A stretch of 64,000 nt of DNA from Tetraselmis striata. Lineage: Eukaryota; Chlorophyta; Chlorodendrophyceae; Chlorodendrales; Chlorodendraceae. Below are positions 1-56,280 of this stretch, piece after piece. The stretch is taken from contig VCJN01001560.1 in NCBI GenBank assembly GCA_006384855.1, positions 78,227 through 142,226 on the forward strand. The letters are read 5' to 3'. The stretch's first letter is position 1. Each line of letters begins with the position of its first letter. The notes under the pieces were generated by a model that saw only the letters and a list, made by a program, of their open reading frames with translations, did no database searches and was not told where the DNA came from. The translations under genes and the position numbers were made by a program.

Positions 1-2607
1 CATGTATGGTGAGATTTCATGTAACCATAGGGCATGGCGTCTGCCTAGTCCTTCCTGTGTAGGCAAATGCCTCAATGTGGCATGGTCAGTTATAACTGTA
101 ATACGGCGACTGCCTTCCAAGTAGCAGTGCCATCCTTTCAGAGCACATACCACACCCAAGAGTTCTTGGTCATAGGTGGGATAATTTGTTTGTGCAGCCT
201 GCAATGTCTTTGCATAATAGCTGCAGGGGTGGAAGTGGCCATCAGCATTAGCCCGGAGCAGAACTGCACCTAAGGCATATTTGCTGGCGTCAGTAGCCAC
301 TACAGACTCAGCATCTTTGCCGGTGACAGGGCTTGCCAGCACTGGGGACTGGCACAAGGCTTGCTTCAGTTTTACAAATGCAGCTTGGCATTCAACTGTC
401 CAATCAAATATGTTATCCTTTCTTGTGAGGGCATATAACGGTGCTGCAATAGCAGAATAATTGCGCACATAGCGTCGGTAAAAATTGCAGAAACCAAGAT
501 ATTGTTGGACATTTTGAACGTTCTTAGGCCTGGGCCAATCCTGAACAGCCTTCATTTTATTAGGCGAGGGTCTTAGGCCAGCGTGTGATACCATATGTCC
601 AAGGTATTCTAGTTCATTCTTGGCAAACCAGCATTTCTGTAATCGTAGTCTAATGTCATTAGACTCGAGCATAATAAGAGCTGTGTCCAAATGTTGCAAA
701 TGTTCCTCAAGCGAGTTGCTAAAAATCAAGACATCATCCAGGTATACAAGTATAAAGGTATGCTTGTGTGGCTGGAGTATAGATGTCATCAGGCGTTGAA
801 AAGAGGAGGGAGCACTGGTGAGTCCAAATGGCATTACTAGCCACTCGAATTGGCCATAGACAGTTCGGAACGCTGTCTTAGGAACATCAGGTGGATTAAT
901 CCGGAGTTGGTGATAACCTAAGGCGAGATCAAGAGCTGAATAGACAGTAGCACCAGATAGCATATCAAGTAATGCATCAGCAGGTGGAACAGGGAACTCG
1001 ACCTTTTTGGTGTACTTATTCAATTGACGGTAGTCAATGCACATGCGCAGACCGCCATTGGCCTTGCGGGCGAAGAGAACAGGAGCTGCATATGGCGAGA
1101 AGGACTCCTGTATAAACTGTTTCTCAAGAAAAGAATTCAGTTGTGTTCTTAGTTCCTCTAATTCTGCAGGTGATAATCTGTATATTTTTCCTGCAGGAAC
1201 TTGAGCATCAGGAACAAGAGGGATCTCATGATCAAGACCAGGGCGTAATTGTGGAAGGTTGTCAAGTGGAGAGCATATTGGTTTATGCTTCCGCAATAAG
1301 TCTCTGATCTGAGCGGTGTAAGCTGCAGACTGGTCAGTGTCAATTGTATTTATCTCATCATCAATATCGAGCTCATCACTCTCTTTGGTGGCATTGTATT
1401 GTTTAACAATGGCGCAGAAATAAACTGTGTCAGGATCATGCTTGGCAATTTCTCTGGCCATGGCATTAGCATGAACCATTCTGACATTAGCCTGGCGGGG
1501 CTCTGTTTGGCATTGGACTTTTAGTCCTGTGGAAAATGTCATCAGACCAGATTCCCAATCAACATGTGGGTTGTGTTGTTTCAGGAATTGCATCCCTAAA
1601 ACCAGATTGAAATTATGTTGTAACGGTGTGACTGTGAAGTCAATGGGTATTGTGTAATTGTTGATATTTAATTCAAGGGTGATTTTTTGTGAGGCGAGAA
1701 CCATTCTACCATCAGCAAGAATAACTCTTACTTTGTTTTGAAGTGGTGTAGTTGGTATTTTATTTTCTTTGACATACTTGGTGCTGGCAAAGTTCAAAGT
1801 AGCACCGCTGTCGACCAGTACGGAAGGTGTTATATTAAATTCAGCACATGTTGGGTGTAATAGCAATAAGTCATGATCAGACTTGCTGGTAACAAAAAAA
1901 CTTTCTGTCATCATACGTGACTGGTGGGACTTTGTGGCTTTTGGTTTATATTCCTTACCTTGCTGTTCAGCCAGCATGGTTTTGAGTTCCTCAGTGGTAA
2001 CGACGTCATTAATTGCCTGGGCTTTGATATCTTGTTGCAGAAATGGTTTTTCAGCACTGCAATAATCTGAACAGACAGCATCATATGCTGAGGCACAGGC
2101 ATCAAAAGTGACTGGACCATAGGCATAATTCAGTCTCTTGAATTCTGCTTGGTCAAACACAACAGAGTCAGTTGGACATGCATTTGGTTTTGCACATTTG
2201 TCAATTTCAGTGTCATTCTTTTGATTACTGTTTTTGGTACGCATTCTGCGCACTCGAGATCTCTTTTGCATGATAGTCAGTTTGGCATGCAGTTTAGCAT
2301 GCGTCTTTTTGTCTTTGACATTTTTGTCGACATTTTCTCTGCACCCTGTCTCGTCCTCGATGTCGGCAACGAGGTGTGAATGAGCACAGGAACACCCATG
2401 AGCTTCATGCTCAGGTTGTGAGTCGGAGGGGTTCAGTGCCGCGGGAGCGCAATGCTCAACCATATCGACATCTGTATCCTCGATCTCATGCAGGGGCTGA
2501 GCAGGCAGTTTAGCAGTGCATGCATGTTTGCAAGGACTCGGCGACATGTCAGTGTCAATTGTCTCAATTACATTGAGAGGCACAGGTTGGCATGTCGCCC
2601 AACACCG
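1..2607 (-). CDS. pol: Ty3/gypsy Pol polyprotein (protease, RT, RNase H), partial at window edge
   Basis: Reading the minus strand from 2607 leftward gives one frame with no stop I could find down to base 1, so about 868 codons are visible and the rest (end of RNase H, integrase) lies outside the window. An acidic/Cys-rich linker comes first. An aspartic-protease signature (DSGATLNF) lies near 1800-1825, followed by the usual ADGRM stretch. The RT then carries CIDYRQLN near 1030-1055, a VMPFGLTSAPSSF block near 810-840 and the catalytic YLDD at 733-744. RNase H begins with VATDASKYALGAVL near 260-300. The order protease-RT-RNase H and the motifs are those of Ty3/gypsy (Metaviridae) elements. 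The long open frame suggests a young copy. The frame is the same one that ends Gag, with only a TGA between them. Confidence 0.93.
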
Positions 2608-2610
2608 TCA
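2598..2610 (-). promoter_or_regulatory. Gag/Pol junction: in-frame leaky-type stop UGA CGG
   Basis: Sense strand reads AAA TGA CGG TGT TGG GCG. The stop is TGA at 2608-2610, CGG at 2605-2607, and Pol continues in the same frame with no break to the window edge. UGA followed by CGG is one of the known efficient stop-codon readthrough contexts in RNA viruses. I infer that Pol is made as a Gag-Pol readthrough product. A downstream RNA structure, often required, was not modelled. Confidence 0.7.
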
Positions 2611-3656
2611 TTTGTTTTTATGTAAGTCGATCTTGTCGACTTGCTTGGCTAGCTTGTTAGCTGCCACTTTGGCTTTGAACTGTTCTTTGTCATGTTCAGA
2701 CGCATGGCGGCATTCATAAATTGAGTGGCCTTTTTTGCCGCATTTGGCGCACTCACCAGAGAAGCGACTCTTTTTTGTTGACGACTGGGGAAGCTGCTGT
2801 GAGCAACAGGACGACTTGGGGCAGAGCTGGTTGATGCTCCGTTGTTGCGTGACCACGGGTTTGTGGAGGTTGGCATGTGATAACGACCTGAATACTCCTC
2901 GTAGCGACGCTTGTGTTTCTTGATGTTGGCTTGCCTCCTTTGGGCAATCTCGACAGCGACGCGGTGCTCCTCGTCGATAGCCGAGAGATGTCTGAAAAGT
3001 ACTTCATGAGTCAAGACAACCTCGTTGTTGTGGTTAGCCATCCTTTGCACCTCGGCTCTCTCGTGCTTGGGAATCGCCTGCAAAATACGCTGCACTTGCA
3101 AGTACTCAGGCACAACAAAAGGTTCATGCAGCAAAGCAAATGCAGCTTGTAGCTTGCGCTGCAAGTCGACACAGCAAGTAGCCATCTTGGGGTCGCTCGG
3201 CTTGATGCAGATGTTACGCGCATAGTCTCCGACAGTTGTCTGAATGCCGTTGGGGAAAGCGGCCTTGAAAAAAGCTTGTTTCCAATCTTGATAGTTGACA
3301 AAGTGAGTCAGGACCTCGCAACCCATAACAATGTGAACTTGAAGCTCATGGCTGTTGAGTACAAGTTGGTGGGTGTGAGCCGCGATAGAATCGGTCTTGA
3401 ACTGGCGACCGAGCCATGCCTCCGTCTCAGGAACCCAAAGCTTGTTGCGGTCGGAAATCTCCTTGTCGACATTCTCCAGAAAGGCCTTGACTGCTGGGAA
3501 GTCATGAACGTCGGCGAGCTTGTGAGAGATGTTCTGGGTTGGTGCCACAACGCGGGCTTCCAGCATCTTCTTCTCGACAATTTGACGCATAGACTGCTCG
3601 GCGGGTGGACCACCGGGAGGGTAACCGGCTTGACGGGCGCTCCGGTGCGATGCCAT
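2608..3656 (-). CDS. gag: Ty3/gypsy Gag with CCHC zinc knuckle; one -1 frame break
   Basis: The N-terminal 290 or so residues start at 3656 (MASHRSARQAGY) and look like a retrotransposon capsid. The nucleocapsid zinc knuckle, CAKCGKKGHSIYEC (C-x2-C-x4-H-x4-C), lies near 2700-2745 but in the -1 frame relative to the capsid. The frames overlap between 2649 and 2856, and they can be joined at an A6 run on the sense strand (T6 at 2771-2776). The knuckle frame then ends at TGA 2608-2610. The A6 region does not fit the classical X-XXY-YYZ heptamer in the capsid frame, so a one-base indel is more likely than programmed -1 shifting. Capsid assembly and RNA packaging are the expected roles. Confidence 0.85.
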
Positions 3657-3811
3657 GGCGACACAGAATTTCGGATAAAGGTTGAAGGGTACAGAATCGT
3701 TACCAAGGGTCGATAGGACCTGCGAAATCGCGAATGTATCGTCGTGCGTGCGATAGCAGGTCGCGGTGGGTCGGCAGGTGGAGATGGATCGTAACAGGAA
3801 GCCGAAACCAG
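3657..3811 (-). other. Gypsy 5' leader between LTR and Gag start
   Basis: Non-coding leader expected to hold the primer-binding site and packaging signal. Apart from the candidate PBS next to the LTR, I see no recognisable motif. Confidence 0.4.
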
Positions 3812-4162
3812 TGTAAGTACTCGTGGCAGTACTTAGTGAAACAGGGCTCTTACTCGTAGCGTTTGGCGAATTGAGTTGGTTGCAGAATGTAATCTCTTAC
3901 AACATGCTGGTGGCATTGGATATTTATCCTATAGCGGTCGAACTGGGCACCGCGGACAGGCAGCTAGTAGCGCTATCCTGATGATTAGGAGTTGTAGCGC
4001 GTACTGTATGTTACAAGGAATATTTATTACTGGCGCCTGGTTGTGGCCGTACCAGTACATAATACGCGTGCTGAAATACAGCAGTACAATACAACAGTAA
4101 GATTACTTGGCCATAAAACGTCGCAGGTGGTATTAGGGTAGTCGCTAGGCGCAACCCTAACA
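3812..4162 (-). repeat. Putative 5' LTR of the gypsy element
   Basis: On the minus strand this block starts TGTTAGGGTTGCGCC and ends CTTACA (TG...CA). Its outer edge at 4162/4163 is exactly where homology to the second Gag-YR copy (around 8436) begins, which supports it as the insertion boundary. One base inside the inner edge, 3797-3810 reads TGGTTTCGGCTTCC on the sense strand, a candidate primer-binding site starting with TGG. The priming tRNA is not identified. The partner 3' LTR is outside the window, so the inner edge is tentative. Confidence 0.5.
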
Positions 4163-5169
4163 CCAGTAAGTCCCTTGGCAAAGAACATGAAGTTGACAAA
4201 CGCGGCCACGAGGGCTCGGACCGAAGTCGTGTTGGTACTCTGGGGTGGGAGCAGACACATTCAACTCGGCCTTCTCGACGAATCTATAAGCTACACCAGC
4301 ATGCAGAGGAATTCGCAAAGGGGCGACTTCCAGACGGCGCTGCCGCAGCATCAGCCCACGCCTTGCCAAAGTGAGGTGTAGGTTGTCCTTGGCGATTGGG
4401 TCGAGGTTGTTCAGCTCGAAGAACGTGTTGATTGCAAGTAGGGTTGCAGTGACTTAGCTTCAGTGTGCCCTCGCTCACCAATCTAGGCAACGTACCGGAC
4501 GACAGTAGAAGTGGTCGCCTCCGGCGGGCTGATGTTCTCGGAGTCGTGGCAGAACTCCGCGAACTGAGACAGTCTGCCGGGGTAGCTCTTGAGTGTCTGA
4601 GCGGTGAGGGAGCGGGAGAGCAGGTCGAGTGTCCGTTGTCCTAGCTCGTCCGAGCCGAAAGCATCATGCAGTCGAGATCGCAGTGAAGCAGCCCAGGGAG
4701 CGACAGCCTCGGGCTCGTCAATTACGTAAGTGCGTCGTCTTACCGACAGAGTTCCAGAGGTGCGACTACTGTTTGCAAAGCACTCGGCAGCAGCGGTTAG
4801 GTTCCCGGCGGCTGGCCGGCAGTTGCTGGACGGGTTTGCAGTAGGACCAGTACGGGTTTGCGGGGCTAGGTTCAGGTAGGAGGGCCGCCCCGAGCGCCCT
4901 TCGCGCTCGTAGCGCCTATCACGCGCGTAACGTACACGCGCGAAGCTTGGTCGTTGCGAACCGGTTGTGACACGCAATGTAACAACCGACGGACGCAGTG
5001 AGGAAATGGTACGGGAAGCGGTTGGTTGAGCCGCCATGTGCAGGTGTGCGGATGGTTGAGCCGCACTCGGCTGTAGCTGTAGGAAGCGCCACACCGAGGA
5101 AGGTCTAAATGAAGTCTGTAAGGTGGGGGGGGGGGGGGGGGGGGTCAGGTCCAGACATAGGGCGCTCAT
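4163..5169 (-). pseudogene. Tyrosine recombinase of Gag-YR copy 1, truncated
   Basis: The frame begins at ATG 5167-5169 and passes through a C20 tract (six prolines). It carries a recombinase core-binding domain (SLTAQTLKSYPGRLSQFAEF) near 4560-4620 and reaches TAG at 4483-4485. Downstream, small deletions relative to copy 2 (for example near 4436-4440) shift the frame, and the catalytic R-H-R-Y half is lost at the gypsy boundary. It cannot encode an active recombinase as it stands. Confidence 0.75.
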
Positions 5170-5263
5170 CCCGCCGTTGAGGTGCAAGGATGCGTTTTGC
5201 GGCGGTCACCAAAAGGTGGCCTCGCAAGGCTCCAGCAGCTCCGACGAAAGGCGCCCCACACCG

Positions 5264-6139
5264 TCACTCGTGCTCACCTTCGCAGCCACGCCCACATCCA
5301 CCGCCACGTCCTCGTCCACGTCCGCGACCTGCAGTTGCTGCCGCCACCCGAGCAGTAGCGGCTGCTTTGGCGCTGCTAGCCACGGTCGCCTCGAAGACGC
5401 GACGCTCGTAGTCCCTCATGAGGTCCCCAAAAATCGCGGAACCCGTATGCTCAGAAGCAGGCTGAAAGTGCTGAGCTCGCCGCACGTCCAGGACACCGCC
5501 TTGGTCACCGTGCACACGCTTGACCTCATTAAGCCTCCGTAGGAAGGCCAAACGAAAGCGAAACGCCTTGTCAATGGCTTCGGCGTGGTTCCGAGCTCTC
5601 GCGAGGTAGGGGGTGAAGTCCAGAATGGCAGCAGGGACGTAGGGCAGCAGCTCGTCGAGAGCCACGAAAAGTGCGGCCATGTGGGCGCCGAAACACGACA
5701 TCCATAGATACTCCTCCTGGGCCGGCAGACGCCGGTCATCATGCTTGAGGTACTCGTTCGTTAGGTCGGTGCTCAGGGAGAAGAGCCCAGGCACTCGGCT
5801 GACAGGTCGAACGGCCTCGTAACAAGACTCTGCTCGCTGCAGTAGCTCTGGCACCGCGAGGTAGTCATCCTCGTCACTCACGGATTTTGCTCCGACACGG
5901 CCGCTCTGGGCTAGCTCTAGCAAGTCGGGGCGCTATGCGGCTCCCCCGTTGCCTGTCGGTTGTCCCGCGATGCGCTGCCCGGAACCGGAACCATGTGCTC
6001 CTCCATCAACAACGCGCTCACGAGCCGTAAGTTGGGCGAACGCTGTAGCAAGCTCTCGCAATAATGTAGACTGGGCATTCACGTCTGCGTGCAGCGACTC
6101 GAGCGTCGGCTCAACGACGGGTTCTTCTCCATCTGGCAT
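5264..6139 (-). CDS. Gag-like protein of Gag-YR element copy 1, with in-frame TAG
   Basis: The frame starts at ATG 6137-6139 (MPDGEEPVVEPTLESLHADV), a short stretch with heptad-like leucines that could be coiled coil. It meets TAG at 5933-5935 and continues in the same frame for another 220 codons. The second part has a helical central region (EYLWMSCFGAHMAALFVALDE) and an Arg-Gly-rich tail, features of DIRS-type Gag proteins. It ends TGA CGG at 5264-5261. The same TAG is present in copy 2, so it was inherited, not acquired in place. It may be a nonsense mutation in the mobile source copy or a read-through or suppressed codon. I identify Gag by position, tail composition and resemblance to the Gag upstream of the RT at 16.7-17.5 kb, not by a named domain. 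Confidence 0.6.
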
Positions 6140-6253
6140 TGTAATGCACGGGCGTACGGATGAGAATATCACAGACGGGTGGTGAGCCGGGTGTGGTCTT
6201 GAACAACCTGGGGTGACCTTACTCGCAACAGGTTACGATACAGTTTTAACATC

Positions 6254-6445
6254 GCTGCGTGGAACGCAGCGAAAACTAGAAGATGGCAGGCTCGGCTGTT
6301 ATGGCTGCTTTTATGTCTACTCGTGCTGCACCCAAAAAGGGCGCAACGACAGGTGCCTAGCTAGTTCCCGTACCACTGAGCAGCACTTGTAGCTGAAAAG
6401 CGGTTAGGTCAAGGGAGGAAACCCCATAAACTAGTTTAGATCATT
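6254..6445 (-). repeat. Terminal repeat of Gag-YR copy 1 (right end)
   Basis: 192 bp, nearly identical to 10544-10735 and to 7599-7784, all in the same orientation. It opens with a 7-bp inverted repeat around 3 bp (GCTGCGT GGA ACGCAGC, 6254-6270) and ends CTAGTTTAGATCATT. The palindrome is a candidate recombinase binding/crossover site. Confidence 0.8.
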
Positions 6446-7598: not shown

Positions 7599-7784
7599 GC
7601 TGTGTAACGCAGCGAAAACTAGAAGATGGCAGGCTCAGCTGTTATGGCTGCTTTTATGTCTACTCGTGATGCACCCAAAAAGGGCGCAACGACATGTGCC
7701 TAGTTCCCGTACCACTGAGCAGCACTTGTAGCTGAAAAGCGGTTAGGTCAAGGGAGGAAACCCCATAAACTAGTTTAGATCATT
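7599..7784 (-). repeat. Left terminal repeat of Gag-YR copy 2
   Basis: Same repeat as 10544-10735 and 6254-6445, with a slightly degenerate opening palindrome (GCTGTGT A ACGCAGC). It is a direct repeat, unlike the inverted ends of classical DIRS1. Confidence 0.8.
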
Positions 7785-7903
7785 TCAAAGTTGAGTCTGG
7801 ATTTGCCAGTCATGAGCGAACGGAGAGAGCGGTGGATTGACGGAGAAGGGGTAGCGCCAGGTCATGAAGGAGGCACCGGGAAGGCCACCGCTGCGGAGTC
7901 CTG

Positions 7904-9456
7904 TTAGACTTGGAAGTGGCGCAGGGGGGCGATGTGGCCAAAGAAGAACCATGCGCCAGGTGAAGGAAGAACGTTGGGGTCGATGTAGTCCAGAATGACG
8001 TCGGAGTTAGTGGCCCGGTCGCCTTGGTAGCGAATGTGGGACAATGGAACTCCGATGGTATTGGCAGCATACGCTGCTCCCTTGCGAAGGCTGTGTGAGG
8101 TCCAGGAAGTGCCGGCGGGAGGGGCAGCACCGACAAGACGGACGGTTGTAGACAGCCAGTCCGACATTGTAGCGGCGGTCCAAGGGTTTGACTGCTCGCT
8201 TGGGGTGGCCGCCCAGAAGTTTGTTTCAGCCAAGGCAACAGTAACCAGGGAAACATATTGTATCGTGTCGATGAAGTGGTGCAGGAGACGTGCAACTCGG
8301 GGGTGTTCTAACACCGGAAGGAGAAGCACGCGCATGTCGTCGGGTCCCTGTCGGCCAGCGCGGCCTCTCTCGCGGTACACCTGCAGGGTAATGTTGTAAT
8401 CGTCGACATGCACATCCCGCACTCGGCAGGAGACGCCAGTAAGTCCCTTGGCAAAGAACATGAAGTTGACAACCGCGGCCATGAGGGCTGGGAAGTCGTG
8501 TTGGTACTCTGGGGTGGGAGCAGACACAATCAACTCGGCCTTCTCGACGAATCTATAAGCTACACCAGCAGGCAGAGGAATTTGCAAAGGGGCGGCTGCC
8601 AGACGGCGCTGCCGCAGCATCAGCCCACGTCTAGCTGCAGTAAGGTGTAGGCAGTCCTTGGCGATTGGGTCGAGGTTGTTCAGGTCGAAAAACGTGTTGA
8701 TTGCAGACAGGTAGGGTTGCAGTGACTTAGCTCCAATGTGCCCTCGCTCACCAATCTAGGCAACGTACCGGAAGACAGTAGCAGTAGTCGCCTCGAGCGG
8801 GCTGATGTTCTCGGAGTCGTGGCAGAACTCCGCGAACTGAGACAGTCTGCCGGCGTAGCTCGTAAGTGTCTGAGCGGTGAGGGAGCTGGAGAGCAGGTCG
8901 AGCGTCCGCTGTCCTAGCTCGTCCGAGCCGAAAGCATCATGCAGTCGAGATCGCAGTGAAGCAGCCCAGGGAGCGACAGCCTCGGGCTCGTCAATTACGT
9001 AAGTGCGTCGTCTTACCGACACAGTACCAGGGGAGCGATTATTGTTTGCAAAGTTCTCGGCAGCAGCGGTTAGGTTCCCGACGGCTGGCCGGCAGTTGCT
9101 GGATGGGTTTGCAGTAGGACCAGTACGGGTTTGCGGGGCTAGGTTCAGGTAGGAGGGCCGCCCCGAGCGCCCTTCGCGCTCGTAGCGCCTATCACGCGCG
9201 TAACGTACACGCGCGAAGCTTGGTCGTTGCGAACCGGTTGTGACACGCAATGTGACAACCGACGGACGCAGTGAGGAAATGGTACGGGAGGCAGTTGTGC
9301 GCCGCACCGAGCCGCCATGTGCAGGTGTGCGGATGGTTGAGCCGCACTCGGATGTAGCTGTAGGAAGCGCCGCACCGAGGAAGGTCTAAATGAAGTCTGT
9401 AAGGTGGTGGGGGGGGGGGGGGGGGGGGGGGTGAGATCCTGACACATGGCGCTCAT
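7904..9456 (-). CDS. Tyrosine recombinase of Gag-YR copy 2; one TAG and one frame break
   Basis: The N-terminal part starts at ATG 9454-9456 and runs through a C23 tract (seven prolines). A small sequence change near 9290-9310, relative to copy 1, puts the upstream part in another frame. The core-binding domain (SLTAQTLTSYAGRLSQFAEF) is followed by TAG at 8756-8758, then in the same frame by SLQPYLSAINTFFDLNNLDP and the catalytic domain. That domain has HSLRKGAAYAANTIGVPLSH, with the H-x-x-R signature, and a candidate tyrosine nucleophile in ILDYIDPN. The related recombinase at 12.7 kb has Trp (SSWAADHG) about where this one has TAG, so TGG to TAG is the likely change. Integration by strand exchange is the expected role. 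Confidence 0.8.
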
Positions 9457-9550
9457 CCCGCCGTTGAGGTGCAAGGGTGCGCTTTGCGGCGGTCACCAAA
9501 AGGTGGCCTCGCAAGGCTCCAGCAGCTCCGACGAAAGGCGCCCCACACCG

Positions 9551-10429
9551 TCACTCGTGCTCACCTTCGCGGCCACGCCCACATCCACCGCCACGTCCTC
9601 GTCCACGCCCGCGTCCTGCAGTTGCTGCCGCCACCCGAGCAGTAGCGGTTGCTTTTGCGCTGCTAGCCACGGTCGCCTCGAAGACGCGACGCGCGTAGTC
9701 CCTCATGAGGTCCCCAAAAATCGCGGAACCCGTATGCTCAGAAGCAGGCTGAAAGTGTTGAGCTCGCCGCACGTCCAGGACACCGCCTTGGTCACCGTGC
9801 ACACGCTTGACCTCATTAAGCCTCCGTAGGAAGGCCAAACGAAAGCGAAACGCCTTGTCGATGGCTTCGGCGTGGTTCCGAGCTCTCGCGAGGTAGGGGG
9901 TGAAGTCCAGAATGGCAGCATGGACGTAGGGCATCAGCTTGTCGAGAGCCACGAAAAGTGCGACCATGTGGGCGCCGAAACACGACATCCATAGATACTC
10001 CTCCTGGGCCGGCAGACGCCGGTCATCATGCTTGAGGTACTCGTTCATTAGGTCGGTGCTCAGGGAGAAGAGCCAAGGCACTCGGCTGACCGGTCGAACG
10101 GCCTCGTAACAAGACTCTGCTCGCTGCAGTAGCTCTGGCACCGCGAGGTAGTCATCCTCGTCGCTCACGGATTTTGCTCCGACACGGCCGCTCTGGGCTA
10201 GCTCTAGCAAGTCGGGGCGCTATGCGGCTCCCCCGTTGCCTGTCGGCTGTCCCGCGATGCGCTGCCCGGAACCGGAGCCATGTGCCCCTTCTCCATCAAC
10301 AACGCGCTCACGAGCTGTAAGTTGGGCGAACGCTGTAGCAAGCTCGCGCAACAATGTAGACTGGGCCTTCACGGCTGCGTGCAGCGACTCGAGCGTCGGC
10401 TCAACGACGGGTTCTTCTCCAGCTGGCAT
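9551..10429 (-). CDS. Gag-like protein of Gag-YR copy 2, with in-frame TAG
   Basis: The frame starts at ATG 10427-10429, meets TAG at 10220-10222 and continues in the same frame to TGA at 9551-9553, followed by CGG. Apart from a few substitutions and one extra codon before the TAG, it matches copy 1, including the Arg-Gly-rich tail. The conserved TAG and the conserved TGA-CGG terminus are the notable points. Confidence 0.6.
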
Positions 10430-10543
10430 GGTAACGCACGGGCGTACGGATGAGAATATCACACACGGGTGGTGAGCCGGGTGTGGTCTTGAACAACCTG
10501 GGGTGATCTTGCTCGCAACAGGTTACGATATAGTTTTAACATC

Positions 10544-10735
10544 GCTGCGTGGAACGCAGCGAAAACTAGAAGATGGCAGGCTCGGCTGTTATGGCTGCTT
10601 TTATGTCTACTCGTGCTGCACCCAAAAAGGGCGCAACGACAGGTGCCTAGCTAGTTCCCGTACCACTGAGTAGCGCTTGTAGCTGAAAAGCGGTTAGGTC
10701 AAGGGAGGAAACCCCATAAACTAGTTTAGATCATT
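10544..10735 (-). repeat. Right terminal repeat of Gag-YR copy 2
   Basis: 192 bp. Begins with the perfect palindrome GCTGCGTGGAACGCAGC (10544-10560). No target-site duplication is evident next to it, as expected for recombinase-mediated integration. Confidence 0.8.
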
Positions 10736-11963: not shown

Positions 11964-13310
11964 ATTAGACACAGTGCGAGTCTCGTTTGCAAGGGAAAAC
12001 CGAAAGGGACGACAGACTACGACCGGACGGTAAGGGGAGTGCCGATGACGGCGGTGGCCGACATGCCGGCGGGATTGAAAAGGAGAAGAAAAACTTGCCG
12101 GGGGCGGAGTCCAAAATTCCGGGGACGATGTAGGTGTGTGGACGACGCTTCTGCCGTCCACTTAGTTGCCGAGCCAGCAGATCTTGGGCAGGGGAACGCA
12201 AGCGGCGGAAGCCGCAGAGGCCCTGCGTTTCGCAGACTGTGCGACGTCCAAACGAAGCCGTGCGGTAGTGGCCGTTCGTTGAGGGCCCGGCAGGACATGG
12301 TAACCCAGTGGGTAACCGTGTCCGACGCCCAGGAGCCTCGTTAAGGCGCGGAAAACGTACCAATCGCATTTGGGGTTGTCTCGTAAGGCTTGCGCACGAC
12401 GTATACTCGCACCGAAGGGTGACGTTCGCTGGCTTGAGGGGCACACGGATGCCCGCCACTCGGGAATGTATCCACCTTGGCGAGTTTCAAGCCGTTGACT
12501 ACGTGATTGACCATAGGGCCGAGGGCAACGGGTTCCCGGGTGTGGTCGTGGAGGAAGGCGTTGACCGCGGAGAGGTAGGGCTGGAAAGCCCGGGCCTTGT
12601 TGCGGCCGTGGTCGGCCGCCCATGAACTGTAGCGGACGATGAAGGGCGTGTCTGCGTCCATCGGGAAGAAACCTTCCAACGCGCAAAACTCCATGATGAG
12701 GTTCAGCTGCGACGAGTAGGTCGCGACCGATCGCGGCTTCAGGGAAGCGGCCAGGAAGTCCACTGCCCGTTGGCCGATGTTGTCCGCGCCAAACAGGCGG
12801 ATCGCGCCCGTGCGCATGCTGGCCGCCCAAGCCCCAAGGCACCGGCGCGATCGCGCGTATCGTAGCGCATACCCCGGCGGCGCGTGATTGCGCATGCAAG
12901 CAGGGGCGTCGGGGCGGGGGCACGCTCCAGCGCCGCGGCCCGATGCCGGCGTGCTCGTCTCGCCGTCCGGGAAAGAACAAGTCGCGGGAGGGCAGTGTAG
13001 CACCTCGGTAGCCAGGTCGTGCAACTGCGGCATCCACGGTCGATCGTACCACGCTAGGGCGACCACCGTAGCCGCTGCGCCCGATTGTCGCAGCTTGCGG
13101 ACGAGATCGCCGTCCAGCATGCCGATGAAGGCGGGGGGGGGGGGGGGGGGGGGTGCACCAATTTACCTCGCTGCGCCACGTGTCGTCCGGTAGAGAGAGG
13201 GAGTCGACCGCCTCGGTACGAGGGTCCCACCATCGAGAAGTGTACCGGGGTACCAAGGCGTTCTCCATGGTGGCGAAACGGTCCACCGTGTGCTGACCCG
13301 CCCACAACAT
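11943..13310 (-). pseudogene. Tyrosine recombinase of the DIRS-like element, frameshifted
   Basis: Homologous to the recombinases at 4.5 and 8.8 kb but clearly diverged. A 259-codon stretch (12341-13120) holds the core-binding domain, with AFQPYLSAVNAFLHDH aligning to SLQPYLSAINTFFDLN in copy 2. The catalytic part follows in other frames: WTSHSLRNAG near 12220-12260 and fragments of the terminal region near 12080-12130. Several frame changes and a G22 tract at 13133-13154 break the gene. Confidence 0.7.
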
Positions 13311-13568
13311 GTCGACGTACCGAAAAAATACCAGTATCTATCGCCAAATAATCCGACTCATCCACCACGAGGGAGAGCATGTCCGCCCATGCGTTCGCTA
13401 TTGAGCGAATGTACCGAACTCAAATCCGGATGTCGTGTATGTCTAGTAAGTAACACAGTTTCCGTATCTCCGCCATCAATATGAAGTAACTTGACAGTTG
13501 AATCAGCGATGCCTCGATTTTTCAGAAAATTTTAAAAGAACGGGTTCTATATCACTGGCCTACAGTTC

Positions 13569-16674: not shown

Positions 16675-17538
16675 TCATCCGTCGATTTTGGCGGACTTGG
16701 GCTTGTTAGGCTTGAGTTTGAGGTCCTTGGAGTCTTCCGGGGGGGCGGGGGCGGCGGGGATGGCGGCGGGGCTTGGGGCGGGCTCGTCGTCGGTGAGGGC
16801 GCCGCCGAAACGTTTGGTTGACGGCCGCCTTCGCCGCGGCGGTGACGCCGTAGTCGGCTTGTCGTTGGAGACTCTCCTCTCGCGGAGCGCTGCCACTGCC
16901 GGCGAACCGAAGTCAGCGTAACGGGGTCGGAGGAGGCGTGCGCGTCTAAGATCGGCGAGCGTCTTGTCCCCCGCGTCCACATCGCCCGCCGCCTTAAGGC
17001 GTAGGTAAGCGACGAAGTCGTGGCGGTGCTGGTTGCTGGCGCCGAAGGCCACAATTGCTGCTTTCAGGACGCCAATGTCCGCCGCATTAGGGGGGACCTC
17101 CTCGCTAGCCGCTCCTTCAATCGCCGCTGCCGCCTCGTTGAGGGCCGCGTGAGCGACGGCATGTAGAAGCCATATAGCAGTATAGCGAGCGGTACTGGTC
17201 CATCTAGCCAAGTGCCGCTTCTCGGTAAGGATGCGGCTCGTCTCGTCAGCCTCAATGTCGTAAAAATCCGGCGTCGTTGACAGGCCGGGCGCCGGCTGAA
17301 TCGCAAAGCCGGGCGCAATGATGGAGGTCCAATCCTCCCACATGAGGGAGTCGCCGTCGGAGAGGAGAGGGCGCGCAAACGTCACCGACGCATGGGGCGG
17401 ATCGTATGGCGGGTCGTAGCGCTTCGCGGCAGCGCCTAGGGCGGCGGGCGGGCGTGGCTCCGAAGTGGTGTTGCCGTCAAGCCGTTGAGGGTTACGGGCG
17501 AGCGAGCAGGCGCGCAACAAAGCTGCGAGATTCACCAC
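16675..17538 (-). CDS. DIRS-like Gag, ending UGA CGG
   Basis: 287 codons with an Ala-rich helical centre (ARYTAIWLLHAVAHAALNEA), a segment LRRARLLRPRYADFGSP and a Lys-rich tail. It has the same position and general layout as the Gag of the Gag-YR elements. It ends GGA TGA CGG (TGA at 16675-16677), and the downstream RT region starts in the same frame. No zinc knuckle is visible. Confidence 0.6.
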   Translation of the reverse strand: MVNLAALLRACSLARNPQRLDGNTTSEPRPPAALGAAAKRYDPPYDPPHASVTFARPLLSDGDSLMWEDWTSIIAPGFAIQPAPGLSTTPDFYDIEADETSRILTEKRHLARWTSTARYTAIWLLHAVAHAALNEAAAAIEGAASEEVPPNAADIGVLKAAIVAFGASNQHRHDFVAYLRLKAAGDVDAGDKTLADLRRARLLRPRYADFGSPAVAALRERRVSNDKPTTASPPRRRRPSTKRFGGALTDDEPAPSPAAIPAAPAPPEDSKDLKLKPNKPKSAKIDG

Positions 17539-17639
17539 CGAGGCCTCCAGCTCGGCGAAACGGGCAGGAGAGGCGGTGGACGAGCCGGTGCTCGCCGCAA
17601 GTTGAAATTGAAACTGAAATTAAAATCGATTACAACTGC

Positions 17640-26143: not shown

Positions 26144-28352
26144 CGGCGGCGAGCTCGTGCTGGAAATAGCAGTGTGTGTTGGCAACGGCGCGGCAGCTAG
26201 TACTACGTTTCGTCACTCGACGGACGTGATGATCTGGCGATCACCGCTGATCATCACATAGACATTCATCCAATTCGCCACTCTATTCCTACTGTTTCCC
26301 TCGGTGCCTACGCAGCGAGCAGCACTGGCGTAGCGCGGCTGAGCAGAGGCCCAATATGGAGTTATGTTGCCTCTAGTGGGGTACATGTGTCATCAACGGG
26401 CGGCGCGCGGCCGCCCACTTTCCAGGAACTGTTGTATGTAATAATGAAACTGCCCTGCTCACTAACACCACTGCGCGTTGCAGTGCCTGGACTCAGCTCA
26501 ACAGCGCCTGGTTGGGAAGGCAACGACGCGGGCATGCTATTCTACCATGGCCCTACTCGGTGACAATGCAATACACCTCGGTGCAGGCTTGTTACTATGA
26601 CCAGCTAAAACAACCCCCACCTGATGCCCGGCATGTTGCAACACATCGTTGTTGTGACATGAGTACGAGTAGTATGGAATGATACTGTGATAATTCTCAC
26701 GACTCTTAAGAGCTGCATACAAACTATGGGAGGATCAGAAGAGTGCTAATTATTTTATTATCATTGCGAGCTCTCGTTCACGGGTGCCGACGCATTTGAA
26801 AAAGAGCAACGCAAATCACTGCCCCTGGCCTTTAGTCAGAGGGCTGCATGTCACGGGCTCCGGCCGAAGCTATGCGGGTTCATCATTCATGCAGCCGGGC
26901 CGTAAGACAGCTGGCCTGGTTCGACCGGGAATAAAGTTTCAACAAACTTCAATCTTTTCGATTTCAGTAGCGTAAATCATAAGCTGCCCGGCCTGCCCAT
27001 CAGAGGTCAGATGGTGTAGACCGAATTCAAGCGAAAGTTCTCATAGTATGTTGCGGGCACGCTCTATTCGAAGCATGTAGAAAAGATTCTTATACGTGTG
27101 TTGACGTCTGTTTTTCTCCGCCGGTATGCGCTGTTTGAATCCGGTTTTGATAGCTACTAGCCAGGGACAAGGGAACACATTAGGGGTTTACAGCAAACAC
27201 AAGGGTATGTTATATCTCGAAAAATTTTGTGATATACTTACGGTTGTCCAGGGTCTTCGCATTGTTGGCTTACCGGATGGTTTTACTCAGCACGTTTGTA
27301 ATAACTGGGCGTCTGTTCATCGGTCTGCGCGCGCGGACAAAGAACTGGCGCTCGAGTAGAAGAATAGATAGGCTTACGACGAGTGGACACGGCTGGGGCG
27401 AAGACCTTGGAGAGGATATTGCTTACAGCTTCCTCAATCAGCAGAGCGGTGGAGTTATATTCACATACAGCATCATCGTCGTCACCGCCCTTTGTTAGGG
27501 CATGCGTCCAGAATGCCGCCTGTCATGGGTTTCGTCCGCACGAAGACGACGGCACTGCGCGCTTATACAGATAAAAAAACAGCCTCACTGCTGCGGCTGG
27601 TGCGGGCCGGTACGGGTTAAACGATATGTCGCGACGAGTCGTCGGACGACCGCGTCAACAATCATCCGCTCACGGCAGTTCAGAATTACTCATACTCCTA
27701 GGCGGTCGCTACCTGTCCCTGCGATATCAGCAGCGCGCACCTGCTGCTCCGCCTTCTGCTCCTCCCTTCCCCCAACCAACTCCATCAAGCTCATCCGCCT
27801 CCTGCTACGAGTACGAGTACGGGTATGCTTATTTTATATTGCTACTGCGGGCTCCGCCTGGTTTATGGCATGTCGTACCGTTCCGGCGGCCCATCTTTAA
27901 AACGTTCGTGTCACGTTATATACACGCGTCGACAACGTTGAATACTTTAAAGCATGCTATGATAGCGTGTGGACGCGTCCCACCGGATCCGGCTCTCATC
28001 GACATCATCCGCGGCGCCGGCTGGGCCGCGCGTGCGCGCGACACGCTGTCCGCCACGACAAGTTACCGGTATTAAGACGCCCTACAGGTACGGCGCCGCG
28101 GCACAAGCGATCTTCCCTACTCAGCATCGTTTCGCCCGCTGGCCCACTTCCGACACTCCGTCGTCGCGCGAGCACAAGCAACGGCTTCGATACCCGAAAC
28201 CAAGACCTCCTCCCACGGTCAATGCCTAGCTTTCCCCTGGCTCCGCTGCAGCTTGTCGACTGACGGGACGGTACGGCTGTGCGCGCGACATCTAGTAGGC
28301 GGCCTGTCAGTGTGCTTTTTAGCTTGATAGAAGGCGGCGCGCCGCGGAGCCG
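26144..28352. other. Intergenic, no supported gene
   Basis: Frames up to about 150 codons exist on the plus strand near 27.5-28.2 kb but have no recognisable domain and no consistent splice pattern. The 3' UTR of the RRM gene and the promoter of the PDI-like gene should lie here. Confidence 0.3.
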
Positions 28353-31300
28353 ATGGCGCTCCCCATGCCGCGCCGGCGGGCGGGCGGTGCCGCGGCGCTG
28401 CTCTGCCTGACGGCCCTCCTAGCGGCCAGCGGGCTCGCGGCGGCGAAGAAGGTAGTGGAGCTTAGCCCGCAGGCGTTCGCCAACATGCGCGATAAGTCGA
28501 AGAAGCTCCTGCTGGTGGAATTTTACTCTCCGGGTGCGTGCGTTCGACCCCCCCCCCCCCCCCCCCCCCAACACCCCGGCCGGAGACTCCGAGCTGCCGA
28601 CAGCGGGGCCTCCCCGTGCCGCCGTCCACCCCTCGTCTCGGCGCTGAAATTCGATTCATCCCACACAGACTGCTATCATTGCCAGGCGATGGACCCAGTG
28701 CTGGAGGGCGTGGCGGAGAAGCTGGGAAACAAGGTGACGGTGGTGAAGATCGACTCGCGCTCGGCGCACGACCTCAACCGCGAGCTCAAGGTCCGCGGCA
28801 CGCCAACGATGCTGATGTTCAAGGACGGGCAGGAGATCACGGAGGCACGCGAGGACATCCAGGTGAGCGCCCCCGCCTCTTTCCACATATCTCTTGCCTA
28901 ATTCGTTGTTCTATGAGCGTATGAGCAGTTGGAAGCAGGTCTGACCCCCCCCCCCCCCCCCCCCCCCCTCCTCCCGTTCGCCCCTCGTTCCTTGGCATGG
29001 CGGCAGGGCTACCGAACCGTGGACGTGTTGTCCTCCTTTGTGGCCAGGCACATGGTGCCGGAGGTCACGGACGTCAGCAGCGTGGAGGAGGTGGACGAAC
29101 TGGTGGAGGAGGAGGGCCTCGTGGTGATGGGGCTGTTCAACAATGCGACGGACAAGTACACGCAGACCTTTGGCGAGGTGGCCAAGAAATGGCGGCGCTA
29201 CATGCGCTTCGTGCGCGTCGCGGACACCGCGGCCGCCACCAGCTTCGCGGAGGCGTACGAGGTGGACGAGGTGCCCGCGGTGCTCATCGTGAAGCGGCGC
29301 GACGTGGTGCTACAGTATGACGGCCAGCTCACCAAGCGAGCGGACCTCGAGGACTTTGTCAACATGTATGGCTTCCCGCTGGTGGGCAAGTGGGGCGTGC
29401 TCACCTACTACCGCTACAAGAACCGCTCGACGCCGCGCGTGTACCTCTTCCACACCGCCAACCAGGCGCAGGCGATGGAGAGCGCCATGAACGCCCTCGA
29501 GGAGGTGGCCGCCGACTTCGACGAGGTGGGCGTCCCGGATCCTCAGCCCCCTCCCGCTACCCCCCCCCCCCCCCCCCGCCCGCCGTACTTCGCGCTCCTC
29601 CCCTCTCTCTGACAGTGCTCATGGGGGGCCAGAGTCTGAGCACAGGGCGCATACCCACGCGGCGCACAGGTCAGCTTCATGACCGTTAACCACGAGGCTT
29701 CGGAGAGCGACAAGATCCGCATCATGCACAAAGTGGGCCTCACCGACTTCAGCATGCCGGCCATTGCGGCCGCGCCCGCCAGCGGCGAGGGCTCCCTCGC
29801 GATGGACCAGCTGCAGGTGCATGCCCACCCCCCCTTCGCCCCCAATACCCCTGCATCGGCTTTCTGTTTCCCCTCCTGCTGGCCTCCGCTGACGACGCTC
29901 GCCGCCTTGCCGCAGAACATCACCGCCGACAGCGTCCGCGCCTTCATGAACCGCTTCGCCTCGGAGGGCTGGTTCGACAAGAAGCACCGCTGCGACGTCA
30001 TCCAGGTCGGCCTCATTCCTCGCGCCCTCCACTCCCTCCCTCATGGCAGCATGCATGCAGCGCCCGCCTGCCAGCTCCCTCTGCTTCGGACCGGCTTCCT
30101 CGCGTGCATTGCGCCCTCTGACCCCCCCCCCCCCCCCCCCCTCTCCGCCCTTCTCCGCCCCCCCCTCCTTAGTCGCCCAATGATCGCGAGGGCAACTACA
30201 CCGGCGTCCTGCTGGACAACTATCGCAGCTACGTGGAGCGTGAGAAGTCGCGTCTGGGGCTTGTGGAGACCGAGATCCGCGAGATCGACGAGTACGCCTT
30301 CCGCAAGGTCCGCCCGCGGGGCCAGCCCCCCCCCCCCCCCCCCCCCTCACCCCTCTCCACCCGCACAAAACACACACATGCCGCAGAGTTGGCCGCTGCA
30401 TGTGCGGGCCGGGGGTCAGGGGCTTTTCCGCTCCGCCGCCTGGAAAGGACTGTCAGGGTCATCGGTTTGATCATTCTGGCCGATCTCAGCCCCGTTGCGC
30501 CCTGTCATGACACACCTTGGGCTCGATTTGCTCCATGCATGCCATGTAGGCTAGGCGTTCCGGTAGAAGGGTGCTGTGCCCAGGTTAGGAACGGCTCTGG
30601 GGGGTGTGCCGCTGACCCTTCACCCCCCCCCCCCCCACCCCCCCTTCCTCTTGGCCCCTTTCTGTTATTTGCTGGCACGCAGGTGGCGCAGAAGACGTGG
30701 CGCGACGTGCTGACGATCTACACCTGCCGCACCTGCCTGCACTCGCTGCACCTGGAGGACACGCTGCACAAGATGGTGCGCCGCGGCGACCTGGCCGACC
30801 TGCTGGAGGAGGAGCTCATGATCGTGAAGGTGGACGTGGCGCTCACCAAGACGCTGCCGCAGAACCACATCAAGGAGCTGCCCGCCATGAAGTACACCTC
30901 GGCGCGATACAGGTGGGCGCCTCTCCCCCTCCCCCCCCCCCTTTTTATCCACGGGGAGATTTGTTGGTATGAAACACACGCTCACACACACATGTGCATA
31001 TATTACATGTATCAAGATGGTTTTATGTACCGTATTCACCGTGTGCATGTATTTGTACATATGTAGACAGTGTGTAGTTACAATATATGAAACATGTAAT
31101 ACATTAGAGTCGGGGAAGCGGGGGGGGGGGGGGGGGGGCTCTCGCAGCCCCTCTTGTGGGTCTGATGGGCAATGTGGGGCAACAATGGGTCAGGTGAAGG
31201 AACGGGTCGGCCATGAGTGAGGGGTAAGGGGCGCTGGCCGGGTCGCGGCAGAAGAGGGTGCGGGGCCAAGGCGGCCTTCCCGCGCTCGAGTGCCCTCTGC

Positions 31301-53743: not shown

Positions 53744-55314
53744 TTATTCGGTAGACTGATCGGTTAGTAGTAATAGCGGCAATGCCATTATGAATGGATT
53801 GGGCATTTGTTCCTTCCGTTGCGTCGTTTTTGCGAAGCACGGCGCTAAAGAATACGGTGTCGGGATCTTTTTAAAGTATTTCACGAGCCATGGTTTTGGC
53901 ATGAATGACGACGTCGACATTATTGAAGCGGGGTTCAATAGGGCATGTGACGGTGTGGCCGTCGGGATGTGTGAGTGAACCGGCGGTCCAATTAAATTCG
54001 GGTCATTTTTTTGAAGAAAGACATGCCCCTGAAGGCGTCGAAGTTATTTTGTTAGTTTGTTCAGACAAACTCAACATCGGCTTGATATTTTTTCATATTG
54101 CAGGACCGTGACGCAAGTGTCATGCGGCCGTTGGCCATAATGACTCGTAATTTATTTTTTGAGCGGCGCGGTTTCATATTTGCGCAGGCGAACGAATAAC
54201 TCTTTTGTAGAACACGGTGTTGCGCCGGTTCCAGTAGCATAGCGGGCGGCGGCAGGTCCGGGAGATCTTGTAGTTGGGATTTAAGGAACACTGAATCGAT
54301 ATCGGAGATAGAGGTTACGAATGCTTTCTTCGGTTTCAAAGCAGGGCTGGTGAGACTTCTTAAACGTCTTAATGAGCACATATATAGGTCTTACCTTCAG
54401 AATCTAGCTCACGAGCTTGATGTGTTCAGAGCGCATACTGTCGTTGTGCGGCGTGGCCGGCTACTCGTCGACATCATCATTGTCGGCGAGGTAAACAAAC
54501 ACGATCAAGTTAGTCGGTGGCATGGGCAAGTCATCGGTGGAACATGTGGCAGTGTGGAACAGGTAAGCGCAGGCGGGATTTGAGTTAATCAGGCGGTACT
54601 TCGATAATAAGATGGGACGCCGGGAGTTGCCGAGATCGCTATTCCAGCGGGGTAAGACAAGAATAGCACGAGTATCGGCGACATGAGATTCATGGCGCTG
54701 AGCCTCAACGTGTACAAGCATGCGCATTTATCATACGGGGGATGAATGAATACAGTATGATAGATAGAATACAATATGACAGATAGCGGAACTGGAAGTA
54801 ACGGGTTATTGCGTGAACAAATCAAACAGACCGCGTCAAATGCGGAATAAGCACGAGCATGAGGAGTAACCGGGCCATAATTATAATTAAGGCGGGCAAA
54901 ATCATCACGATCAAAGGTAGTGCAGTCAAGTGGGCAGGCACGTGGCCGTGTAGGCTTTGTTATATTGCCAGTGCCTAGGTGGTGTCGGTAAAACTTCCGA
55001 ACGGCAACACGTTTTTCAATCGCGGATAACTTGGCAATAGTTGTATCAGCTAGGATGGCAAAGTCGACATTTGCGAAAATGAACCGAATCAGCTCGCGCA
55101 AAGGCATCGAGTGCGTCGACTTGACATGCAACGGGCGTGACGAGGTGGCCCCGTCACGCGCACACCGGCACGCACGGCTAGGCCGCGCTGTCGGGAGTTC
55201 CACTGGGCGTAGGCCAATAGGCACAATCTCGGGAATGGGGGACGGGCTCGGCCAGTAAGACAGATGGTCGATTGATTTACAATTCAAAATCGAATATAGG
55301 CTGGCCCCAAACCG
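53744..55314 (-). pseudogene. Second gypsy copy: decayed pol (linker and protease region)
   Basis: Sequence collinear with the 1-2607 element but strongly diverged. It has DDFARLNYNYGPVTPHARAY (cf. AEFKRLNYAYGPVTFDACAS) near 54850-54910, the protease segment LRVIMANGRMTLASRS (cf. VRVILADGRMVLASQK) near 54100-54150, and AKTMAREI plus DPDTVFFSAV near 53830-53900. Frames change several times, and RT and integrase are missing, so the copy is dead. Its value is as an independent comparison for the gag-pol junction. Confidence 0.75.
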
Positions 55315-55317
55315 TCA
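55309..55317 (-). promoter_or_regulatory. Gag/Pol junction of the second gypsy copy: UGA CGG
   Basis: CAA TGA CGG TTT GGG GCC, with the downstream frame continuing in phase to 54589. The hexamer and most of the next ten bases match the junction at 2598-2610 although flanking protein sequence has diverged widely. Confidence 0.65.
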
Positions 55318-56280
55318 TTGACCGTCCGGGCGGTTCAAGTTCAGCTTGGTTATACCCATAGCTACGTTGTTGGCGGCCACTGTCGGGCGAGAGGCATGCT
55401 TGTCAGCCTCGCTCATTAATGAGCATTTCATGATAGAGTAGCCCACTTGGCCATAGCCATCGCACTTGCCTTCATAGCGGTGAAAGCGAGACCGGCGAGG
55501 GGTGAAGGGGGGGGCAGATGTGGGAGGCGAGCATGTGATAGCGAGAGTAGTCGGGGGGCGGGGGGGGGGGGGGGGGATAGAACGGACCGGCACCCGGACG
55601 GGTGTATCGGCGAGGCGGCTCGGCAGCTGGCAGCTTGCGCTTGCCAAGGGCGGCAGCGGCGAACTCGATGTCGATGGCCCCGAGGTGGCGGCAGGTGGTA
55701 GCGTAGAAGGCGGTGGGCTCGTTCGCGCGACGGCCGGCGGCCTCGAGGGCAGCTTGAGCTGAGTTGGGGAGGCATGCTTGGATGACGCCAACAATGGTAA
55801 ACCCGTTGTAGCAGATAGAGGTGCTCCGGCAAGCCTATCGAAGGTGCGCCGCAAGTCGTGGGCGAGCTTGATGGCGTTGCCCGGCAGGTGAGGATGGTCG
55901 GGGCGATGCGCATGCCAGTGGCGTAGCGCATGATGACGCCGAACATGTTAGAGTTGGAGTGGAAGCACGCCACAAGCTTGGACTAAAGTCGCCGATGTCG
56001 GCAAAGACGACGGTGGCAAAACTAACGCCATGTGCGACGTCACGAGGTACGGGACGATTTGTCGGCAAGTAGGCTGTTGGGATATATCATACCGGCGTGC
56101 GACTCCGGCGGGATCCGACGCACGATCTAGGCCTCCGGAGCAGGGGTCCAGTAGATGTTGGTGGTAAGCTCCTTGAGGTATGTAAAAAACGCCCTGAGCG
56201 GACGAACGGATGTCGATCTTCGTGGCGTCTTGGCCACCGACGGCGGCGCCAACGACGGCGGCGGCTTGGTCGGCCATGGT
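55315..56280 (-). pseudogene. Second gypsy copy: decayed gag
   Basis: The terminal part aligns with the first gypsy Gag over the degenerate zinc knuckle (CDGYGQVGYSIMKC) and the following EADKHASRPTVAANNVA (cf. EHDKEQFKAKVAANKLA). It ends CAA TGA CGG with the stop at 55315-55317. A possible start (MADQAAAVVGAAVGG) lies near 56280. Indels and a G-run at 55558-55577 break the frame. Confidence 0.65.

What the first reader, a model, noticed from the sequence alone, without database searches (positions are those of the whole stretch)
2598..2610. Gypsy gag and pol are in one frame, split by UGA CGG: likely programmed readthrough
Seen: TGA at 2608-2610 is followed by CGG, and the same frame then stays open for 868 codons to the window edge through protease, RT and RNase H. 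Known: UGA-CGG is a leaky-stop context used by several RNA viruses, and readthrough is one of the ways retroelements make Gag-Pol (murine leukaemia virus uses UAG). Inference: this element expresses Pol by UGA readthrough. Every other Gag-type frame recognisable in the window also ends in TGA CGG (5264, 9551, 16675, 55315): five loci from at least three element lineages. Chance TGA alone is about 1/3 per stop and CGG after it about 1/64, so five of five is very unlikely by chance even allowing that two loci are recent copies and two are homologous.
Basis: partly seen in the sequence, partly recalled or inferred. Interest (0 to 1): 0.9.

Follow-up and report, generated by a model that had tools for sequence, protein, structure and literature searches.

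The report
Leaky stop codons in algal retroelements
Mobile elements of two unrelated kinds in a green alga separate their first protein from the next with the same 'leaky' stop signal and following RNA hairpin that some RNA viruses use to let ribosomes read on, so the next protein is probably made as a minor fusion product.

Summary
The stop is real and very likely a programmed readthrough site, judged from sequence alone. The genome is probably that of the green alga Tetraselmis striata. In the gypsy family (A), 30 of 30 copies fetched by similarity have TGA CGG at the gag end; in 12 of 31 distinct copies full-length gag and pol share one frame, split only by that TGA. The window copy has lost one base, which puts most of gag out of frame. 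A second abundant family (B; ORF1 plus tyrosine recombinase, no RT seen) has TGA CGG in 28 of 30. Two more families keep it in 29 of 31 (A') and 4 of 5 (C). A and B share TGACGGTGTNGGGCG, then a strong predicted stem-loop starting 6-8 nt after the stop: z < -3 in 42 of 54 B copies, at most 1 of 54 at each of four other offsets. In B, third-codon-position bias runs through the UGA in one frame, including the 71 codons before the first AUG, against reinitiation and splicing. These are hallmarks of viral 'type II' readthrough. Against: no covariation excess, no stem in A', mixed in C, A uninformative on coding bias, no protein evidence.

The parts
2608..2610 (-). UGA stop at the gag-pol junction of gypsy family A, followed by CGG (2605-2607)
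   Evidence: TGA CGG in 30 of 30 copies fetched by similarity
2600..2607 (-). 8-nt spacer CGGUGUUG between stop and stem
2540..2599 (-). predicted extended stem-loop: 9-bp base GGCGACAUG/CAUGUCGCC, 7-bp upper stem UCUCAAU/AUUGAGA
   Evidence: z -2.0 to -4.5 in five overlapping windows, -4.5 in the one starting at the stem; second lowest of 217 sliding windows in L070
1..2607 (-). gypsy A pol (protease, RT, RNase H; runs off the window)
   Evidence: Pfam
2611..3656 (-). gypsy A gag, ATG at 3656-3654; one base missing near 2776 shifts the frame in this copy; zinc knuckle in the last part
   Evidence: zinc knuckle PF13917 E 1.4e-4, below its cut-off, in L070
7602..10735 (-). YR element B, copy 2, about 3.1 kb, with direct terminal repeats of about 185 nt (7602-7784 and 10549-10735)
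9551..9553 (-). UGA before CGG ending ORF1 of B copy 2
9446..9544 (-). region of the extended stem-loop of B copy 2 (weak in this decayed copy, z -1.85 for +8 to +108)
9551..10219 (-). B copy 2 ORF1, RG-rich C-terminus (322 open codons in better copies)
7904..9550 (-). B copy 2 tyrosine-recombinase region, broken in this copy
   Evidence: PF02899 E 4.6e-8 in the L067 copy
5264..5932 (-). B copy 1 ORF1 ending in UGA (5264-5266) before CGG
16675..17619 (-). DIRS-like element C: gag-type ORF of 314 codons ending in UGA (16675-16677) before CGG; RT-like peptides follow, read by eye
   Evidence: TGACGG in 4 of 5 related places
54589..55947 (-). gypsy family A' (homologue of A): ORF of 210 codons, UGA (55315-55317), CGG, 241 open codons
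   Evidence: TGACGG in 29 of 31 places

Best explanation
The UGA is a programmed, leaky stop of the viral type II kind. Most ribosomes end at the UGA and make Gag (ORF1 in B). A minority, helped by the UGA-CGG context and the stem-loop 6-8 nt downstream, decode UGA with a near-cognate tRNA and go on in the same frame to make the Gag-Pol fusion (in B, the ORF1-recombinase fusion). Shown by sequence: the conserved UGA-CGG, the shared 15-nt cassette, open frames on both sides in preserved copies, the predicted stem-loops in A and B, and coding constraint across the stop in B. Inferred: that readthrough happens, its rate, the tRNA used, and that a low fusion-to-Gag ratio is the purpose.
For: TGA CGG in 30 of 30 fetched A copies (210 candidates, 40 scored, 30 fetched). 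With stop and next codon left free, 45 of 49 readable A places (4 more withheld) and 29 of 31 A' places are TGACGG; TGA itself is kept in 48 of 49 and 31 of 31. B: 28 of 30 fetched by similarity (L031-L060) and 687 of 734 places with exact flanks. One frame across the stop: 12 of 31 distinct A copies have at least 363 open codons before and stay open for all 562 fetched after; 4 of 56 B copies have at least 315 before and 395 after. Shared cassette: A and B match at 8 of the 9 bases after TGACGG; of 66 unrelated TGACGG sites in the window and the loci found by similarity, none matches A or B at 7 or more of 9, and 1 of 2145 pairs of such sites matches at 8 of 9. Stem-loops: A z -4.5 and best B copy z -6.8 in their best windows, second and third lowest of 217 sliding windows; B at +8 to +108 z < -3 in 42 of 54 copies, against 0, 0, 0 and 1 of 54 at four other offsets. 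Coding through the stop in B: shared substitutions fall in third codon positions in 17 of 20 (last 105 nt before the UGA), 6 of 8 (+3 to +107) and 11 of 15 (+108 to +215); 17 of 23 over the stretch before the first AUG, binomial p 8e-5. Type II definition: PMC3542737 and PMC11166343, passages seen.
Against: No compensatory-change excess in B: the pair counts equal the shuffles, and the RNAalifold consensus has 27 pairs, none compensatory, without the outermost helix. Family A is too young: no third-position bias in the last 499 nt of gag (7:11:7) nor in +63 to +600 (7:3:6), though further out there is some. The window copy of A' has no stem (z -0.6 to +1.1); C is mixed (five windows z +1.3 to -3.2; -0.7 in the window starting at +9, -2.6 at +45). 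One C place and one A place have TGG instead of TGA. One of the first 30 places with the cassette (L082) is a chance site in neither family. In Tca2 of Candida albicans a UGA with a predicted 3' pseudoknot looked like such a site, yet the junction gave no readthrough in S. cerevisiae (PMC2194720, passages). Conservation among young copies is weak evidence by itself.
Confidence: 0.83

Rival explanations
1. Pol (or the recombinase) starts afresh at a downstream AUG by reinitiation or leaky scanning; UGA-CGG is an ordinary stop.
For: In A the first in-frame AUG is codon 21 after the stop, and A gives no coding-bias evidence near the stop; the metagenome relative P0001 is listed as a 1509-aa protein beginning with M.
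Against: In B the first in-frame AUG is codon 72, yet the codons before it show third-position bias in the gag frame. Neither the shared CGG nor the stem-loop is needed for reinitiation.
Confidence: 0.08
2. A rare splice removes the UGA and fuses the frames.
For: Splicing was considered for Tca2 by its authors (PMC2194720, passage); some T. striata gene models join distant parts of these elements (P0168, read by eye).
Against: In B, coding bias is strong in the 105 nt just before and present in the 105 nt just after the UGA in the same frame, leaving little room for an intron; the shared context and stem are unexplained.
Confidence: 0.03
3. UGA is decoded as selenocysteine or is reassigned in these elements.
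For: UGA is followed by a stable stem, as in some selenocysteine redefinition elements (recalled).
Against: No SECIS family among the 3 Rfam matches up to E 5 in L067, L070 and L083 (element ends not covered). Context and spacing match type II readthrough.
Confidence: 0.02
4. Coincidence: stops of unrelated function that happen to read TGA CGG in GC-rich DNA, kept because copies are young.
For: TGA CGG also ends 9 of 226 other ORFs of 100 codons or more in the window; A and B copies are mostly recent; host-gene stops and other RT families were not surveyed.
Against: Shared 15-nt cassette in unrelated elements, stem-loops, coding through the stop in B, and A' places of differing flanks that keep TGACGG.
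Confidence: 0.04

Closest known systems
Type II stop-codon readthrough of RNA viruses (alphaviruses, tobraviruses, furoviruses, pecluviruses, coltivirus segment 9)
   Same: UGA then CGG; extended stem-loop about 8 nt (6-12 nt) downstream; same-frame extension (PMC3542737, PMC11166343, passages seen)
   Different: here in retroelements of a green alga; the spacer CGGUGUNG shared by A and B was not seen in those passages
Fission-yeast Ty3/gypsy elements Tj1, Tcry1, Tosmo1-3
   Same: Ty3/gypsy; in-frame TGA between gag and pol with conserved flanks; the paper infers readthrough and says the stop of Tj1 is essential for transposition (PMC10085805, passages)
   Different: context GAA TGA CT(A/G), not CGG; no downstream stem-loop mentioned in the passages seen
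Tca2 of Candida albicans
   Same: UGA between gag and pol with a predicted 3' structure (PMC2194720, passages)
   Different: 8-nt purine-rich spacer and pseudoknot; the junction did not give readthrough in S. cerevisiae
Murine leukaemia virus gag-pol
   Same: in-frame stop between gag and pol, read through at 5% (figure in a PMC2194720 passage)
   Different: UAG, compact pseudoknot (type III in PMC3542737)
DIRS and other tyrosine-recombinase retroelements
   Same: B encodes a tyrosine recombinase; C has DIRS-like RT peptides (by eye)
   Different: no RT seen in the 3.1 kb of B; I know of no YR element described with UGA readthrough (recall; none recognisable in the 15 papers listed of 26)

Membership tests
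Type II readthrough signal | UGA stop | tested here: met
Type II readthrough signal | CGG or CUA directly after the stop | tested here: met
   CGG in A, A', B, C (same calls)
Type II readthrough signal | stem-loop starting about 6-12 nt downstream | tested here: met
   met by prediction in A (8 nt) and B (6-8 nt); absent in the window copy of A', mixed in C
Type II readthrough signal | covariation in the stem | tested here: inconclusive
   B counts equal shuffles; A has almost no variation
Type II readthrough signal | translated extension in the same frame | tested here: met
   open frames in A and B; coding bias across the stop in B; A uninformative near the stop
Type II readthrough signal | measured readthrough | not testable with these tools
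   needs reporter or proteomics
Ty3/gypsy (family A) | protease, RT and RNase H in that order | tested here: met
   Pfam
Ty3/gypsy (family A) | integrase after RNase H | not tested
   lies beyond the window edge; the 61%-identical relative P0001 lists PF00665 and PF17921, integrase-type by recall
Ty3/gypsy (family A) | LTRs | not tested
   only one end in the window
DIRS retroelement (family B) | tyrosine recombinase | tested here: met
   PF02899 (SAM-like N-terminal domain) E 4.6e-8, above cut-off; catalytic part by eye
DIRS retroelement (family B) | reverse transcriptase | tested here: not met
   none recognised by eye in the translations, no Pfam RT in the 503 codons scanned; so B is not filed as DIRS

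The most novel reading that the evidence does not exclude
Elements of unrelated classes in one host (Ty3/gypsy and a tyrosine-recombinase element, perhaps DIRS elements too) have converged on, or exchanged, one 15-nt cassette UGACGGUGUNGGGCG plus stem-loop. That would mean the readthrough signal is set by the host's translation machinery, with UGA-CGG unusually leaky in Tetraselmis. In B the readthrough product would be an ORF1-recombinase fusion, a use of readthrough I know of nowhere else.
Probability: 0.35. Interest if true: 0.75.

Novelty: new variant of a known kind. Interest (0 to 1): 0.6.

Why it matters
Type II UGA-CGG readthrough is described in RNA viruses; gag-pol readthrough at UGA is reported for a few LTR elements, with other contexts (papers). 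Hundreds of copies in one alga, in two unrelated element classes, give a ready mutational series for which bases around a leaky stop matter, and a test of whether a host's ribosomes dictate which recoding signal its parasites use.

Tried and rejected
Viral contigs: one scan with the RT part of pol gave 3 pattern matches and no relative. AlphaFold of the B recombinase from a single sequence failed (mean pLDDT 32.8), so no fold search was made. PDB sequence search: two weak matches to unrelated proteins (E 0.06 and 0.29). Covariation in the B stem: negative. Coding bias near the stop in A: no power. A first background control for the shared cassette was unfair, because I had filtered out sites resembling the motif and used loci found by the motif; I replaced it. 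This hints at a UGA at its gag end too, but 13 of the 48, the best ones among them, have no stop, and the following codon could not be read. A related fragment in the window (60911-61042) has no TGACGG in the 790 nt read. B ORF1 against C gag, and P0170 against C gag, gave no significant similarity. Of papers I saw passages or listings only. Searches for prior reports; nothing I recognised in their listings reports UGA-CGG readthrough in a retroelement or readthrough in Tetraselmis elements.

Full report
What was claimed and what is there. On the minus strand the window holds part of a Ty3/gypsy element (here family A). The bulk of gag (ORF 2649-3896) is in another frame, because this copy lacks one base near 2776 that 28 of the 29 other copies fetched have. 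The genome (224 Mb, 2903 contigs) is unnamed; all 10 relatives of the A gag found are gene models of 'Tetstr1', at up to 100% identity, which I read as the chlorophyte Tetraselmis striata. Family A has at least 210 candidate places, of which 40 were scored and 30 fetched. TGA CGG stands at the junction in 30 of 30. With one further copy there are 31 distinct copies; 12 have at least 363 open codons before the TGA (gag from its ATG is about 349) and remain open through all 562 fetched codons after it.

5264 and 9551 are two copies of family B, a 3.1-kb element with direct terminal repeats of about 185 nt. Its ORF1 (322 open codons in good copies) ends in TGA CGG, and the same frame continues as a tyrosine recombinase (PF02899, E 4.6e-8). 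I saw no RT in it. B has 1948 candidate places, 40 scored and 30 fetched. Those 30 have TGA CGG in 28, TGA TGG in one and TGT CGG in one. 55315 (family A') is a gypsy homologous to A. 16675 (family C) is DIRS-like by RT peptides read by eye. With the stop and the next codon left free in the pattern, A' has TGACGG in 29 of 31 places (the others TGACAG and TGATAG). C has 6 matches, one unrelated by its letters; of the remaining 5, 4 are TGACGG and one TGGCGG. A has 45 TGACGG of 49 readable places, 4 more being withheld. B has 687 of 734 with exact flanks.

Chance. In the window, CGG follows 58 of 1661 TGA stops, and TGA CGG is 58 of 3816 of all stops. Among stops ending ORFs of at least 100 codons it is 14 of 231, or 9 of 226 without the five loci. 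Even at 4% each, three of three is unlikely. The stronger point is that A and B share 14 of 15 bases, TGACGGTGTNGGGCG, downstream but not upstream of the stop. As a control, TGACGG sites in the window and in the loci found by similarity, junctions dropped by what precedes them and copies collapsed, gave 66 sites: none matches A's or B's next nine bases at 7 or more, and 1 of 2145 pairs of sites matches at 8 of 9 (an earlier control was unfair and is withdrawn). Genome-wide the pattern TGACGGTKTNGGGC occurs 1226 times against 19 for its reverse, which mainly reflects copy number. Of its first 30 places 26 are B, three A, and one (L082) neither.

RNA structure. Type II readthrough in RNA viruses is defined by UGA generally followed by CGG or CUA and, often, an extended stem-loop about 8 nt downstream (PMC3542737, passages; 6-12 nt in PMC11166343, passages). 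In A a 9-bp stem starts exactly 8 nt after the stop. Five overlapping windows give z -2.0, -3.4, -3.1, -4.5 and -2.0, and the window starting at +9 is second lowest of 217 over 2.6 kb. In B the best-preserved copy (L067) forms a stem-loop of about 100 nt from 6-8 nt after the stop (z +0.4, -2.0, -6.8, -3.8 and -4.1 in the five windows, the first being too short to hold it), third lowest of 217, behind two windows near -1050. Over 54 B copies (56 less two without the exact junction motif), the fixed window +8 to +108 has mean z -3.8, with 42 of 54 below -3, against 0, 0, 0 and 1 of 54 at four other offsets. Against: pair counts in 49 distinct B sequences show no covariation beyond shuffles (90.5% of cells paired, 39-48% when slid), and RNAalifold found no compensatory pair and left out the outermost helix. 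The window copy of B is weak (z +0.5 to -1.85), A' has none (z -0.6 to +1.1), and C is mixed (+1.3 to -3.2; -0.7 in the window starting at +9).

Is the stop crossed by translation? If pol or the recombinase began at a downstream AUG, the stretch between UGA and AUG would not be coding. In B the first in-frame AUG is codon 72. Substitutions shared by at least 5 of 54 copies fall in third codon positions in 17 of 23 cases in that stretch (p 8e-5; at least 4 copies 24 of 37; at least 3 copies 30 of 56). Split finely, the bias is 17 of 20 in the last 105 nt before the UGA, 6 of 8 in +3 to +107 and 11 of 15 in +108 to +215, all in the gag frame, while both other frames carry stops within +3 to +215 in L067. 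So the same frame looks protein-coding right up to the UGA and right after it, which also leaves little room for an intron. In A the copies are too alike to tell: 7:11:7 over codon positions in the last 499 nt of gag, one site in the first 60 nt of pol, 7:3:6 in +63 to +600.

Mechanism. I conclude that UGA-CGG plus stem-loop is a programmed readthrough signal, setting a low ratio of Gag-Pol (A) or ORF1-recombinase fusion (B) to the first protein. Shown: sequence, frames, predicted folds, coding constraint in B. Inferred: readthrough itself and its rate. For A' and C the case rests on position and context only.

Compared with what is known. UGA between gag and pol is known in fission-yeast Ty3/gypsy elements (GAA TGA CTA/G; PMC10085805, passages) and in Tca2 (PMC2194720, passages), where the junction alone did not cause readthrough in yeast: a warning against trusting sequence alone. 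[quoted passage not shown] I recognised no report of UGA-CGG in a retroelement in the listings of my searches. So: known mechanism, new setting, and an unexpected sharing of one cassette between unrelated element classes. In this version I lowered confidence by 0.01 for the C and A results now told in full.

Noticed in passing
window 7602-10735 and 4160-6445: Very abundant 3.1-kb element (1948 candidate places) with direct terminal repeats, an RG-rich ORF1 and a tyrosine recombinase but no RT seen; its class is unclear.
   Followed up: partly
window 60911-61042, minus: Fragment related to another DIRS family (P0170, a T. striata gene model); in that family many copies seem to carry a TGA at the gag end (29 of 48 listed alignments that cross the spot).
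   Followed up: partly
genome-wide: 506 places with a gypsy-type YxDD RT motif, in about a dozen spellings among the first 100 listed; the commonest spelling is not that of A. Apart from A and probably A' none was read at its gag end.
   Followed up: no
window 43240-45978, minus: DEAH-box helicase-like host ORF, 99% and 71% identical over 86% to two unnamed proteins, then about 36% or less over most of the query to nearly all other listed hits, first named ones dinoflagellate spn-E.
   Followed up: no
window 28323-31714, plus: Protein disulfide isomerase-like host gene in several exons, with C-rich introns (read by eye).
   Followed up: no
window 12162-13337, minus: A second, different recombinase-like reading frame without a gag-type partner nearby (read by eye).
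   Followed up: no
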